64,000 bases of DNA, from the NCBI GenBank assembly GCA_030595665.1, contig JAUVCV010000005.1, forward strand, positions 1 through 64,000, in the 5' to 3' direction. This document shows, piece by piece, positions 3,735 to 9,655 of the stretch. Source of the stretch: Methanogenium sp. GTDB lineage: Archaea > Halobacteriota > Methanomicrobia > Methanomicrobiales > Methanomicrobiaceae. How positions within the stretch are numbered: the stretch's first letter is position 1; each line of letters starts with the position of its first letter. The notes under the pieces were generated by a model that saw only the letters and a program-made list of their open reading frames with translations, did no database searches and was not told where the DNA came from. The position numbers were made by a program, and so were the translations under genes.

Positions 3735-4721
3735 ATGCAGTATCCAGCCAATACTATTACCAGTTATATGGATAGTGAGAATGGGAAGACCGCCTGCACC
3801 AGCCCGGTCATACAGGCACGGGTCAGGGCAGGCATGACAGTGGCTGAACTGGTGGAAGAACTGGGAAAAGCCGGAGCGTACAACGGAGGATATCTCGCAC
3901 GGGCAACAGACATCTGCACAGAGATGTTTTCCGATCCTGAGACCACACGATTTGTTGGTCTCGCAGGGGCAATGGTTCCCGGTGGTATGGGTGGAATTGT
4001 GGAAGACCTCATCCATGATGGCTATGTGGATGTGCTGGTATCTACCGGCGCCAACATGACCCATGATACAATAGAGGCCATTGGGTGCCACCACTATCAT
4101 GGCACTGAGATCTGTGATGACGATGAACTCTATGAAGAAGAGATAAACCGGATTTATGATGTTTTCCTGCCATCAGACGCATTCGTATCATTTGAGGAGT
4201 TCATGCAGGAGACTCTGGGTAAACTAACCGACGGGACCACCCTCTCAATATCCGGTCTTCTGCGCCACATCGGAGAAAACCTTGACACTGGTATTCTTGC
4301 AGCAGCAGCAGAGGCAGACATCCCCATATACTGTCCCGCCATCCAGGACTCAATGATTGGCCTGCAGTACTGGCTCTTTAACCAGATGCACAAAGTGACG
4401 ATTGATGCGTTTGGCGATATGAGCCAGCTGATGGACACCTGTTTCACGGCAAAAAAGGCAGGAGCACTTCTTATTGGCGGTGGCGTCCCGAAGAACTACA
4501 TCTTCCAGAGTATGCTCATGACACCCAGGGGCTTTGATTACGCGGTCCAGCTGACCGGTGACCGACCGGATCTTGGCGGGCTTTCCGGGGCGACACTGAG
4601 CGAGGCGAAGTCATGGGGTAAGGTGACAGGCGAAGCACATTCCCAGACGGTCTATGGTGATGCAACAATAACGCTGCCCCTCATCATTGCCGCCATGCGG
4701 GAGAAAATGGAACATGCCTGA
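3735..4721 (+). CDS. dys: Deoxyhypusine synthase
   Basis: The 328-residue protein transfers the aminobutyl group of spermidine, using NAD, to a lysine of translation factor aIF5A. The sequence shows the family hallmarks: [10 protein letters not shown] near residue 78, the STGAN NAD-binding turn, the active-site lysine in GGGVPKNY (K253), and the C-terminal [14 protein letters not shown] block. Length fits archaeal members. The start at 3735 is preceded by a CGGTG; a second ATG at 3768 is possible. Its last 8 bases overlap pyrF, so the two are co-transcribed, a pairing without an obvious pathway link. Cytoplasmic. Confidence 0.92.
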
Positions 4722-5349
4722 TCTGATCCTTGCCCTCGATGTCCTCAGCCGCGAGGATGCGAAGCGTGTTGCAGAAGCGGCAGCTCCCCATCTGGATGCG
4801 ATAAAAATAGGCTATCCGCTGGTGCTTGCAGCAGGGCTTGGTATTGCAGGTCCCCTGAGCGAGTTCGGCATCCCTCTCATCGCTGACTTCAAGGTAGCTG
4901 ACATTCCAAACACCAACCGGCTCATCGCAGAACAGGTCTTTGCAGCCGGATTTTCAGCTATCATCTGTCAGGGATTCTGTGGAAGTGACTCTGTTGCCGC
5001 CTGTGTGGAAGCCGCAGATGACGCCGGTGGGGAATGCTATGTCGTGACAGAGATGAGCCATCCCGGTGCCCTTGAATTTTTAAGTGGGAAAAATGCAGAA
5101 CTTCTGGCACAGATGGCTGTTGATACGGGTGCCCATGGCATCATAGCTCCCGCGACCCGCCCTGAACGTGTGCAGACCCTGCGCACAATCATTGGAGATA
5201 AAAAAATACTCTCTCCTGGTGTCGGCGCACAGGGCGGTGACCCGGCAGTCATCGCCCCACTGATTGACGGAATGATCGTGGGGAGAGCAATTTATACCGC
5301 AGAGGATCCGGCAGAGGCAGCACAAGCCTATGCCAGATTTCGCCGATGA
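4714..5349 (+). CDS. pyrF: Orotidine 5'-phosphate decarboxylase
   Basis: The 211-residue enzyme makes UMP from OMP in the last step of pyrimidine synthesis. The catalytic D-x-K-x-x-D signature is present as DFKVADI (D58, K60, D63), followed by the substrate loop region [11 protein letters not shown] and the phosphate-binding VGRAIY near the C-terminus. Length is normal for archaeal PyrF. I start at ATG 4714, which opens with MPDLILALD, the usual N-terminus; upstream in-frame codons lie inside the deoxyhypusine synthase gene, whose TGA is overlapped. The stop codon lies within a possible C/D box RNA. Confidence 0.95.
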
Positions 5350-5415: not shown

Positions 5416-5601
5416 AAACTCATTTTTATGCTACTGTTATCTTCTGTCACCCCATATTCCGGGAAAGCTGATAGACAATTTTTGTCTTCACTGCACATCG
5501 CGACACAAACCGGAAAATAGTGAATAGATGGTGGAAAAAGAGTACATAGCCATATTACCATACAAAGCAGAGATTTTCCTGATGGCTACACCAATAATTT
5601 T

Positions 5602-5991
5602 ATGTGTCCGGTCGCTGAGAATATTTCCATGAACTGGACGCAGGAACAACTCAGCCTCAAGAAAAAATACCCCACTCTTCAGGATATTCCAAATGAAGAA
5701 CGCAGGTACAAGTGCCATACCTGCCACCACGTTGTCGATGAAACACCGTGCCCCTGCTGCGGTGAGACACAACTTGAGATCATGTGCCCGCTTGACCACT
5801 GTCACTGCACCCACAATATCACTGAGACAATCGAATACTGTCCCCTCTGCGGCCAGCCAGTCTGTCCGGAATGCGGCAGTCATGACGTATCTCAGGTCTC
5901 CCGTGTGACAGGATACCTTGCAGATGTATCCGGATGGAACCAGGGCAAGCAGCAGGAACTCAAAGACCGGGCCCACTACAACGTTGCCTGA
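5602..5991 (+). CDS. Small Cys-rich protein with a free-standing NrdD-type glycyl radical domain
   Basis: The 129-residue protein ends with the C-terminal signature of class III (anaerobic) ribonucleotide reductase: two CxxC pairs (CPLC, CPEC), then SRVTGYL with G104 as the expected radical glycine, then NQGKQQELKDR. In NrdD this segment follows a catalytic barrel of several hundred residues, absent here. The N-terminal half adds more metal-binding candidates (CHTCHH, CPCC, CPLDHCHC), making 13 cysteines in all. It may be a spare glycyl-radical subunit for a split or damaged reductase, in the way GrcA serves pyruvate formate-lyase, or a protein that reuses the zinc ribbon. An alternative start is the ATG at 5629. 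Two downstream genes also carry Cys-rich or redox domains. Confidence 0.7.
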   Translation: MCPVAENISMNWTQEQLSLKKKYPTLQDIPNEERRYKCHTCHHVVDETPCPCCGETQLEIMCPLDHCHCTHNITETIEYCPLCGQPVCPECGSHDVSQVSRVTGYLADVSGWNQGKQQELKDRAHYNVA

Positions 5992-6058
5992 TATTCCCGA
6001 CAATTATCTTTTTTCAATTCACAGTGTTTTTCATATCAGATACAACATATACTCAGAT

Positions 6059-6961
6059 ATGCGGTATTTTCTCAGGGACAGGGCACTATTTATCCGCGGT
6101 GTATTCACTGCGGTTATGTCAGGCACACGGGAGACTGACAGAGACAGCAGAATCACTCATATATCAACAATCATCGCCACTCATCTGCCACAGACTAATA
6201 CAAAAGAGGATGCTGACTCCTATATCGAAAATCTCCTCAGGGAGAGCGGATATGATACTGATGCAGTCATTCTGCCGGTTCCAAACCACATAGACCAGCT
6301 TCGCATCTTTGCATATGATGGAATCATGGTATTTGTTCTCGCACGGCCGGGTAAACAGGGAGAGCGTCCAGCCCCTGTTACCATCATTGTCTGTTGCCGT
6401 GAACCACTCCCTGAAGCAGGCCTCAGAACTCTTTTAGTTACCGCCAGTGAGGCAATACACCAGGCGTTCATCACAGCCGGATTCCCTGATGAATCTGAAA
6501 AGGATGTTGCCCTCATCTGTTGTGAAGAAACAGAAGAATTACCCGATGTTCATGAACGTCTGGCACGGGCGCAGGCTCTTGTGACTGAGACAATAGCATA
6601 TGGCATCCCTGAAACATGGGCAGCCAGTGAGACACAAGTCCTCAGAAAACCACCATTTTATATCCATAGTTCCATCGGCGGCGAGCGCTGGACACGATGG
6701 AATCCTGACGGATGTCCGTATTATCCCTGTCATCCATCCTGCGAAGGCCAGCGGTGTGATTTTTGTTACTGCCCATTATACCCTTGTGGCGATGAATCAC
6801 AGGGAAAATGGCTGGAACGAGAAAATTCCGGGAAAATATGGTCTTGTGAAGGATGCACACTCGTCCATGAACCAACCGTTGCAGACTATCTGATCCGGCA
6901 CCCCGAGGCATCCCTCGAAAAACTCAAATATATACGAAAAAAAGGAAAGGATAACGAATAA
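6059..6961 (+). CDS. CbiZ-like adenosylcobinamide amidohydrolase fused to a Cys-rich domain
   Basis: The first 190 or so of 300 residues resemble CbiZ: an opening RDRALFIRGVFTAV, a central YDGIMVFVLAR, VTIIVCCREPLPEAGL, and TASEAI in the place of the family's TATEAK. CbiZ cuts adenosylcobinamide to cobyric acid for corrinoid salvage. The TDAV-type segment is weak (EKDVALICCEE), so activity is uncertain. From about residue 215 follows a small Cys-rich domain (CPYYPCHPSCEG, CDFCYCPLYPC, CEGC), probably binding metal. I start at ATG 6059 because the homologous N-terminus begins there; the longer frame from 5918 runs through the upstream gene. No other cobamide genes are near. Confidence 0.55.
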   Translation: MRYFLRDRALFIRGVFTAVMSGTRETDRDSRITHISTIIATHLPQTNTKEDADSYIENLLRESGYDTDAVILPVPNHIDQLRIFAYDGIMVFVLARPGKQGERPAPVTIIVCCREPLPEAGLRTLLVTASEAIHQAFITAGFPDESEKDVALICCEETEELPDVHERLARAQALVTETIAYGIPETWAASETQVLRKPPFYIHSSIGGERWTRWNPDGCPYYPCHPSCEGQRCDFCYCPLYPCGDESQGKWLERENSGKIWSCEGCTLVHEPTVADYLIRHPEASLEKLKYIRKKGKDNE

Positions 6962-7342: not shown

Positions 7343-9655
7343 ATGGATTCAATTACTCAAACAGCAGAAAGAATCTCCAGAACAATTGAAGAACGGGGGG
7401 GTAAGCCGGAAACAGAAAAGATCGAGGCCAAACTCCGCCTCCTCATCAACGAGTTTCTGGTCCCGGAAGAAGACGCCGAACGTCAGGTGACAAGTGAAGT
7501 AATGCGCGAACAGCAGATCACCGTACCACGTGAAGCGGAAGATAAAAAGCAAATATCCGAGCTTCAGCCGAATGACTGGGCCACTATTGAAGGAAAAGTT
7601 GTAATGGTTGCTCCCGGAGGCAACTCTTCAATCGCACAGCGGGGAATCATTGCAGATGAAAATGGGGCAGTAGAGTTTGTCATCTGGGAAAAAGCTCAGC
7701 TCACACCACTTGAAGAGAATGCATGGTACAGGATAGAGTCCTGTGTTGCGGATGAATACAAAGAAAAACTCAGCATCAAACTGCACTCCGGTACAAAGAT
7801 AATACCAGTACCGGGAATGAGCCGGATTGTCAGCCAAGAATGGCATTCGATTGCAGAGAAGATGGCTGCATCATCCGGAGACTCATCAGAACTGAGAACC
7901 ATTGCATCTCTAAAACCCGATGAATGGGTCACCATAGAAGGAAAGGTGACTATAGCATCAGAGGGGGGGAATCCTGCAATTTCCCAGCGAGGGATTATTG
8001 CAGATACAACAGATGCAATTGAATTTGTCATATGGACTAAAGCGCAACTTCCACCCCTGGAAGAAGGGAACTGGTACAGAATTGAGTCTGCTGTAGCGGA
8101 TAGCTATAAGGAAAAAATGAACCTGAAACTTCATTCAGGCACGAAAATAACTCCAATTTCAGATACAGACAAAACCATTTCATCAGCAGCAGATGAGATG
8201 GGAGCGACACTGAAAACCGGATCAGGTAATCTAGATGAAATCCGTGATATTTCATCATTAAAACCCGATGAATGGGTCACCATAGAAGGAAAGGTGACTA
8301 AAACATCAGAGGGAGGGAATCCCGCAATTTCCCAGCGGGGAATTATTGCAGATGCAACAAATGCCATTGAATTTGTCGTCTGGAGTAAAGCAGATCTCCC
8401 ACCCCTGGAAGAAGGGAACTGGTACAGGATTGAGTCTGCCGTAGCAGATAGCTATAAGGAAAAAATGAACCTGAAACTTCATTCAGGCACGAAAATAACT
8501 CCAATTTCAGATACAGACAAAACCATTTCATCAGCAGCAGATGAAATGGCCGCGACACTGAAAACCGGATCAAACAATACTGATGAAGTCAGCGAGATCG
8601 CATCCGCAAAGCCAGATGACTGGGTGACTGTGGAAGGAAAAATTGTCGCCCTTCAGCCTTCACCCAGCCCTTCAATTGCACAAAAAGGCATCATTGCAGA
8701 CGGGAGTGGTGCAATGGAATTTGTTGTCTGGGAAAAAGCCGGGGCAGAGACACTTGAAGAACACAAGTGGTACAGAATTGAGAGTGCAACCATCGATGAA
8801 TACCGGGGAGCTCCAAATATGAAAATCCACTCCGGTACAACAATCACGCCAGTTACCGAAGACCGCTCCTTAATGCCGGTTATCGTCCCCCTTGCAAACC
8901 TCACCCCTGGTGTTGCCTGTGTGCGGGTGAAAATGCTCACCAACTGGGAGGTGCGTTCAGACCACATGCTCCAGACAGGCCTTGTCGGCGATGAAACCGG
9001 CCGGATGAAATTTGTCATCTGGAAGAGCCGTGATGAGAGTGCAGATGAAACCGTCCTTGAAGAAGATAAGGTCTACAGCATCTATTATGCAGGTGTTGAC
9101 GAGTACAACGAACGATACTCCCTCGATCTTTCCGGAGCAACTATCCTTGAAGAAGAAGGTGAGGACATTGAAGTTGGAAGTGACGGACGCGATGAAACAA
9201 TCACTGGTGCTGTTGTGCAGATGAGCACAGGGTCCGGTCTAATTAAACGCTGCAGGGTGGAAGGATGCAATCGGGCACTATCCCGCCAGAACTTTTGCCC
9301 GGTTCACGAAATGCAGCAGGAATTCCGGTATGATCTTAGGATAACCGGTGTCGTCGATGATGGCATCACTGCAAAGAACATCATCATGCAACGGGACGCT
9401 GTTGAGAAAGTAACCGGCCTTACCCTTGAGAAAGCAATTGAAATTGCAGAAAATTCACCGCTCGGACCGGATGACGTTTATATGCAATTCCAGGACCGCC
9501 TAATGGGGAGATACATTACCTGCAATGGCCCGGATATTGACGGAACTCTCCTTGTCCGTGATGCTGAATCTGTTAACCTTGTTACCTATGACCAGGGAGA
9601 ACACGCGATGATAATAAACCGAGCTGAAGGACAAAAAGAAGGTGATCTCTTATGA
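7343..9655 (+). CDS. rpa: Replication protein A, multi-OB-fold single-stranded DNA-binding protein
   Basis: The 770-residue protein coats single-stranded DNA in replication and repair. It starts with a helical region (about 1-70), then OB folds beginning near residues 75, 191, 307 and 423 (each with a D-x-W-x-T-x-E-G-K entry strand), a more divergent one near 515, and a C-terminal OB fold after a zinc finger (C-x4-C and C-x2-H near residue 636). Four or so OB folds are usual for euryarchaeal RPA; here two are near-copies of each other. GGAGATG lies 5 bases before the ATG. The stop overlaps the next gene by ATGA, so RPA and its partner are made together. Confidence 0.9.
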   Translation: MDSITQTAERISRTIEERGGKPETEKIEAKLRLLINEFLVPEEDAERQVTSEVMREQQITVPREAEDKKQISELQPNDWATIEGKVVMVAPGGNSSIAQRGIIADENGAVEFVIWEKAQLTPLEENAWYRIESCVADEYKEKLSIKLHSGTKIIPVPGMSRIVSQEWHSIAEKMAASSGDSSELRTIASLKPDEWVTIEGKVTIASEGGNPAISQRGIIADTTDAIEFVIWTKAQLPPLEEGNWYRIESAVADSYKEKMNLKLHSGTKITPISDTDKTISSAADEMGATLKTGSGNLDEIRDISSLKPDEWVTIEGKVTKTSEGGNPAISQRGIIADATNAIEFVVWSKADLPPLEEGNWYRIESAVADSYKEKMNLKLHSGTKITPISDTDKTISSAADEMAATLKTGSNNTDEVSEIASAKPDDWVTVEGKIVALQPSPSPSIAQKGIIADGSGAMEFVVWEKAGAETLEEHKWYRIESATIDEYRGAPNMKIHSGTTITPVTEDRSLMPVIVPLANLTPGVACVRVKMLTNWEVRSDHMLQTGLVGDETGRMKFVIWKSRDESADETVLEEDKVYSIYYAGVDEYNERYSLDLSGATILEEEGEDIEVGSDGRDETITGAVVQMSTGSGLIKRCRVEGCNRALSRQNFCPVHEMQQEFRYDLRITGVVDDGITAKNIIMQRDAVEKVTGLTLEKAIEIAENSPLGPDDVYMQFQDRLMGRYITCNGPDIDGTLLVRDAESVNLVTYDQGEHAMIINRAEGQKEGDLL
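7913..8608 (+). repeat. Tandem 348-bp repeat inside rpa
   Basis: Two head-to-tail units of 348 bases (116 codons; residues 191-306 and 307-422) each encode one OB fold plus linker. They are nearly identical at DNA level, including a tract of about 95 bases without difference (from AGCTATAAGGAAAAAATGAA onward in both). Flanking OB folds are much more divergent, so the duplication is recent or kept uniform by gene conversion. Confidence 0.9.

What the first reader, a model, noticed from the sequence alone, without database searches (positions are those of the whole stretch)
5602..5991. Free-standing glycyl-radical domain of anaerobic ribonucleotide reductase in a 13-cysteine protein
The protein has the zinc ribbon and the radical loop of NrdD (SRVTGYL, then NQGKQQELKDR) but no catalytic barrel, plus an extra N-terminal Cys/His-rich part. 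It could be a radical subunit of a split reductase or a repair piece for oxygen-damaged NrdD, analogous to GrcA for pyruvate formate-lyase. I know of no described function for such a protein in methanogens.
Basis: partly seen in the sequence, partly recalled or inferred. Interest (0 to 1): 0.62.

Follow-up and report, generated by a model that had tools for sequence, protein, structure and literature searches.

The report
Split anaerobic ribonucleotide reductase radical subunit
In one whole order of methane-producing archaea the enzyme that makes DNA building blocks without oxygen appears to be cut into two genes, so the small piece that carries its reactive radical is a separate, exchangeable protein, and some viruses carry that piece on their own.

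Summary
In detail: a free-standing glycyl-radical domain (GRD) of class III ribonucleotide reductase. Relatives place the start at 5629, giving 120 aa, 12 Cys and radical Gly at codon 95. This is order-wide (Methanomicrobiales): 31 listed NrdDs end at Pfam position 510-516 of 562, the GRD is in 121 of 135 genomes in one conserved locus, and the genus lacking it also lacks NrdD. Other families of the phylum mostly have fused NrdD. Best explanation: a split, two-component class III reductase with its radical on a detachable subunit. Also found: free-standing GRDs beside a complete NrdD (spare-part layout), a second lineage with truncated NrdD and its GRD in a provirus-like locus, and GRD-only genes in about ten viral contigs. 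Not shown: complex formation, radical, activity. No description was found in the held literature; key subscription papers could not be read.

The parts
5629..5991 (+). free-standing glycyl-radical domain protein (120 aa), proposed radical subunit of a split class III ribonucleotide reductase; start re-assigned from 5602
5911..5913 (+). GGA codon of the predicted radical glycine (codon 95 of the 120-aa protein; G104 of the 129-aa ORF), in SRVTGYL
   Evidence: invariant in 55 of 55 homologues; aligned to the NrdD motif RITGYL of PDB 8p23
5839..5874 (+). CxxC-x4-CxxC zinc ribbon of the GRD (CPLCGQPVCPEC)
   Evidence: invariant Cys; PF13597 match at residues 72-126
5713..5814 (+). extra N-terminal Cys/His modules absent from fused NrdD: CxxC...CPxC ribbon plus C62/C69/H71 (proposed docking region)
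5596..5605 (+). TATA-like element at -33 to -24 of the 5629 ATG (short-leader or leaderless transcript predicted)
   Evidence: column composition over 22 relatives
4687..5349 (+). pyrF (OMP decarboxylase), conserved upstream neighbour
   Evidence: PF00215 E 4.5e-42; found in 74 of 80 loci, some of them contig fragments
6056..6961 (+). CbiZ-like plus Cys-rich small domain protein, conserved downstream neighbour
   Evidence: PF04071 E 7.4e-28; found in 76 of 80 loci

Best explanation
The gene encodes the radical-bearing subunit of a split (two-polypeptide) class III ribonucleotide reductase. The catalytic barrel is the C-terminally truncated NrdD encoded elsewhere in the genome. The small protein would dock where the covalent GRD normally sits, its extra zinc modules replacing the lost peptide link. 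NrdG would abstract a hydrogen from Gly95 by radical SAM chemistry, most likely in the docked complex, and the glycyl radical would generate the thiyl radical in the barrel for nucleotide reduction, with electrons delivered through NrdH as in other NrdD3 enzymes. Because the radical subunit is separate, an oxygen-cleaved radical piece could be replaced for the cost of 120 residues. Shown by sequence: the truncation, the complementary fragment, their shared distribution, conservation of the active-site motif and Gly loop, and presence of nrdH-like and nrdG genes. Inferred: docking, activation by NrdG, catalysis, the role of the zinc modules and the repair advantage.
For: In this genome NrdD matches TIGR02487 2-530 of 581 and PF13597 1-513 of 562; the small protein supplies 523-580 and 503-562. 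NrdD ends '...QIGYFAFTRDLTVSLKQFKEYKQEKNPKSSLSVADRRVEV' where a fused NrdD3 continues '...QIGYFAFTKDLTVCMDDFHVAAGLHEKCPNCGSENVDHLSRITGYIQAVSGWN'. The barrel is not decayed: 63-68% identical to fused NrdD3 of sister lineages over 727-733 columns, finger loop SCYQCCAYQF kept. All 31 order genomes with a listed large NrdD match end at 510-516, while nearly all matches in the other families of that sample reach 560-562. NrdD and GRD both present 40, NrdD only 2 (93%-complete drafts), GRD only 1 (fragmented draft), neither 12 (one genus): Fisher p 2.6e-9, not corrected for shared ancestry. Three genomes with no class I/II barrel match (G042, G174, G200) still have both pieces, so there the split enzyme may be the only reductase. 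An NrdG2 above cut-off and an NrdH-like ORF just upstream of nrdD are present.
Against: No biochemical evidence. The AlphaFold model of the small protein alone is only fair (pLDDT 76, pTM 0.51) and found no PDB match with E below 0.8. nrdD, nrdG and the GRD gene lie at three separate places, so there is no operon support. Most order members also have a class I/II barrel (PF02867 in 57 of 60 genomes), so the class III enzyme is not essential everywhere. Two drafts have NrdD without a detected GRD.
Confidence: 0.88

Rival explanations
1. It is a spare-part protein, like GrcA/YfiD, that only repairs oxygen-cleaved full-length NrdD.
For: Free-standing GRDs do occur together with a complete fused NrdD in several genomes of the G182 class, which is the layout expected for repair; YfiD and T4 Y06I set the precedent (PMC8683613).
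Against: In this genome no full-length NrdD was found to repair; the barrel gene ends before the GRD. Strict conservation and order-wide presence fit an obligate subunit.
Confidence: 0.06
2. The two fragments are joined after translation by protein trans-splicing, so the mature enzyme is a normal fused NrdD.
For: NrdD genes of several order members carry large internal insertions that look like inteins (open frames near 1200 aa), so inteins occur in this gene.
Against: The NrdD tails are only about 30 residues, variable and not intein-like, and the GRD begins with a short Met-started segment without an intein C-terminal motif. Judged by eye from the sequence; no intein profile was run.
Confidence: 0.02
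3. The protein uses the GRD fold for something else, for example as a zinc-ribbon regulator or with another glycyl radical enzyme, and the truncated NrdD is on its way out.
For: Its locus is next to pyrF, a deoxyhypusine synthase and an RPA-like gene rather than next to nrdD; the extra zinc modules are unusual for a GRD.
Against: The Gly loop and the following motif are invariant; NrdD keeps its active-site motif and full barrel length across the order; both are absent together from one genus.
Confidence: 0.04

Closest known systems
Class III ribonucleotide reductase NrdD, subtype NrdD3 of methanogens (fused)
   Same: Barrel 63-68% identical, same QCCA finger loop, GRD with the same Gly loop; an NrdH-like gene upstream. 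PMC9669993 describes NrdD3 as having a QCCR/A motif without Met or Glu.
   Different: GRD on a separate polypeptide with added N-terminal zinc modules; the barrel protein ends before the GRD.
GrcA / YfiD and phage T4 Y06I, spare-part proteins for pyruvate formate-lyase
   Same: Small free-standing glycyl-radical domain with an N-terminal extension, with one host and one phage version (PMC8683613). The GRD-only genes in viral contigs parallel Y06I.
   Different: Different enzyme family (NRDD, not PFL type); here the host barrel has no GRD of its own. PMC8683613 states that only the two PFL spare parts had been validated.
Split class II reductase NrdJa/NrdJb of Pseudomonas aeruginosa
   Same: A ribonucleotide reductase encoded as two polypeptides.
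   Different: Class II, adenosylcobalamin dependent; [quoted passage not shown]

Membership tests
NrdD glycyl-radical domain (C-terminus of PF13597 / TIGR02487) | glycyl-radical motif R[VI]TGY followed by WNxGK...ELxDR | tested here: met
   Gly and flanking motif kept in 55 homologues; PF13597 503-562 E 1.2e-15
NrdD glycyl-radical domain (C-terminus of PF13597 / TIGR02487) | CxxC...CxxC zinc site just before the Gly loop | tested here: met
   C80xxC83 and C88xxC91 invariant; zinc binding itself not tested
Class III ribonucleotide reductase | catalytic barrel with finger loop | tested here: met
   supplied by a second protein, finger loop SCYQCCAYQF
Class III ribonucleotide reductase | barrel and GRD on one chain | tested here: not met
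   separate genes on contigs C2 and C51
Class III ribonucleotide reductase | radical SAM activase NrdG in the genome | tested here: met
   NrdG2 at G000:C49:33690-34256, 152.4 bits over cut-off 131.15
Class III ribonucleotide reductase | glycyl radical and dNTP formation | not testable with these tools
   needs EPR and an activity assay
GrcA-type spare part | coexists with a complete parent enzyme | tested here: not met
   no full-length NrdD found in G000; met in other genomes such as G101 and G369
Subtype NrdD3 | QCC[AR] finger loop without Met or Glu | tested here: met
   definition from PMC9669993

The most novel reading that the evidence does not exclude
In methanogens the radical domain of class III reductase is a mobile, exchangeable subunit that can be obligate (Methanomicrobiales and family f29), spare (in genomes with a fused NrdD), or carried alone by viruses, which would use it to activate, repair or capture the host barrel for their own DNA synthesis.
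Probability: 0.5. Interest if true: 0.85.

Novelty: new variant of a known kind. Interest (0 to 1): 0.74.

Why it matters
Ribonucleotide reductase is an essential enzyme family, and class III is taken to carry its stable radical in one chain with the catalytic barrel. A natural split makes radical installation, docking and oxygen repair separable and testable with two pieces. It gives a natural case for the proposed but unproven idea that glycyl radical enzymes other than pyruvate formate-lyase have detachable radical parts, and it suggests that viruses of methanogens may influence host dNTP synthesis with a gene of about 100 codons.

Tried and rejected
Structure route: AlphaFold of the small protein with 49 aligned sequences gave a fair model with no PDB match, so no structural claim is made. 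Operon argument: rejected, because the GRD locus is conserved with DHS, pyrF, CbiZ-like and RPA-like genes but not with nrd genes. Start at 5602: rejected. The Wei et al. papers on NrdD subtypes and on Methanosarcina barkeri NrdD (known to me from memory) are not held. The tree of free-standing GRDs is short (120 columns) with mostly open branches and is used only for two groupings. The phage collection holds no GRD-only match: its five hits cover a third of the query and lie in Enterococcus phage class III reductase genes.

Full report
Observation. The ORF 5602-5991 (+) is real. Pfam NRDD covers it only at profile positions 503-562 of 562 and TIGR02487 only at 523-580 of 581, so it is the glycyl-radical domain (GRD) alone. 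The best solved relative is the NrdD of PDB 8p23, aligned at the Gly loop. The true start is very probably the ATG at 5629: M10 is kept in 54 of 55 homologues, the nine codons before it are frameshifted in Methanogenium marinum, and a TATA-like element is conserved at -33 to -24 of that ATG. The protein is then 120 aa with 12 Cys and the radical glycine is codon 95.

The partner. In this genome a search with TIGR02487 gives two places: NrdD at G000:C2:6441-8168, matching 2-530, and the window protein, matching 523-580. The NrdD ORF ends about 30 residues after '...QIGYFAFTRDLTV', where fused relatives begin their zinc ribbon and Gly loop. Its finger loop SCYQCCAYQF is that of fused NrdD3 and it is 63-68% identical to fused NrdD3 proteins of sister lineages. 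An NrdH-like ORF precedes it. A radical SAM activase of the NrdG2 family lies on contig C49.

Distribution. In a sample of 197 genomes of the phylum, all 31 order members whose large NrdD match is listed stop at position 510-516, while nearly all matches in the other families reach 560-562. The GRD occurs in 121 of 135 order genomes at least 90% complete. Twelve of the 14 without it belong to one genus, g21, and all twelve also lack any NRDD match; the g21 members in the PF02867 search have a class I/II barrel. A contig of G032 (genus g14) has the same length and position as that of Methanocalculus taiwanensis, so g21, in the same family, is probably Methanocorpusculum (inference). The counts NrdD+/GRD+ 40, +/- 2, -/+ 1, -/- 12 give Fisher p 2.6e-9 without correction for ancestry. 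The named relatives from GTDB contigs are Methanomicrobiales or MAGs named only as Euryarchaeota, the nearest being Methanogenium marinum at 99%, so the window is from a Methanogenium or very near it.

Locus. The gene order DHS, pyrF, GRD, CbiZ/Cys-rich gene, RPA-like gene is conserved in about 70 of 80 loci. No nrd gene is beside it. Differences at codon positions 1/2/3 of 0/1/17 against M. marinum show purifying selection.

Other states. A class-wide search outside the order found free-standing GRDs in seven genomes of genus g49, one of g35 and one of f30 that also carry a fused NrdD (in G386 that NrdD is broken over two frames), and in G106 a frameshifted GRD remnant next to a class I/II reductase gene. 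In f30 (L221) the GRD lies next to a virus-type primase gene. In family f29 (G315, G316) the NrdD again stops just before the GRD, at '...FAFTKDMTFCLSED', and the only GRD found sits in a locus with a Mu-like portal and a tail-tube gene. Whether that split is independent was not tested.

Viruses. Nine IMG/VR contigs carry a GRD with intact Gly motif and no barrel: L196, L197, L198, L199, L200, L240, L241, L244, L245; a tenth, L246, matches weakly, below the Pfam cut-off. L199 has terminase and portal genes downstream, L200 baseplate genes, L196 and L197 a replication module. No NrdD was found in the same records, seven of which are 42-64 kb, but they may be fragments. In the tree L196 groups with a Methanomicrobiaceae GRD (86/93) and L244/L245 with the g49/g35 GRDs (100/100), which suggests exchange between viruses and hosts.

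Mechanism. Inferred by analogy with YfiD, which is activated only in the presence of its barrel and whose N-terminal half aids binding (PMC8683613). The extra zinc modules here may do the same. The core shared by the free-standing GRDs aligned is a C62-type Cys, CxxC-x4-CxxC and the Gly loop; the first ribbon (C38/C41/C50/C53) is missing in some.

Novelty. [quoted passage not shown] Searches of the held library found no description of a split class III reductase. Subscription papers could not be read, so a prior mention cannot be excluded.

Noticed in passing
L196, L197, L198, L199, L200, L240, L241, L244, L245 (L246 weak): GRD-only genes in viral contigs, without an NrdD barrel gene in the same records (fragments possible).
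   Followed up: partly
L213-L221, L224: Free-standing GRDs in other methanogens that also have a fused NrdD, and a frameshifted GRD remnant next to a class I/II reductase gene in L224.
   Followed up: partly
L222 1445-1741 (-), L223 4514-4810 (-), L233 2784-4910 (+): Family f29: truncated NrdD whose only GRD found lies in a provirus-like locus with portal and tail-tube genes.
   Followed up: partly
G029, G011, G044, G032, G037; L202 1710-5132 (+): NrdD open frames near 1200 aa with the match interrupted in the barrel, probably inteins.
   Followed up: no
window 7343-9655 (+): RPA-like protein with at least four similar OB-type repeats, conserved downstream of the GRD locus.
   Followed up: no
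window 6056-6961 (+): CbiZ-like segment (weak, below cut-off) joined to a Cys-rich small domain (PF04071), conserved neighbour of the GRD.
   Followed up: no
G042, G174, G200: No class I/II reductase barrel found (PF02867) although both pieces of the split class III enzyme are present.
   Followed up: no
L213 5394-5690 (-): Ferredoxin-thioredoxin reductase catalytic chain two genes from a free-standing GRD.
   Followed up: no
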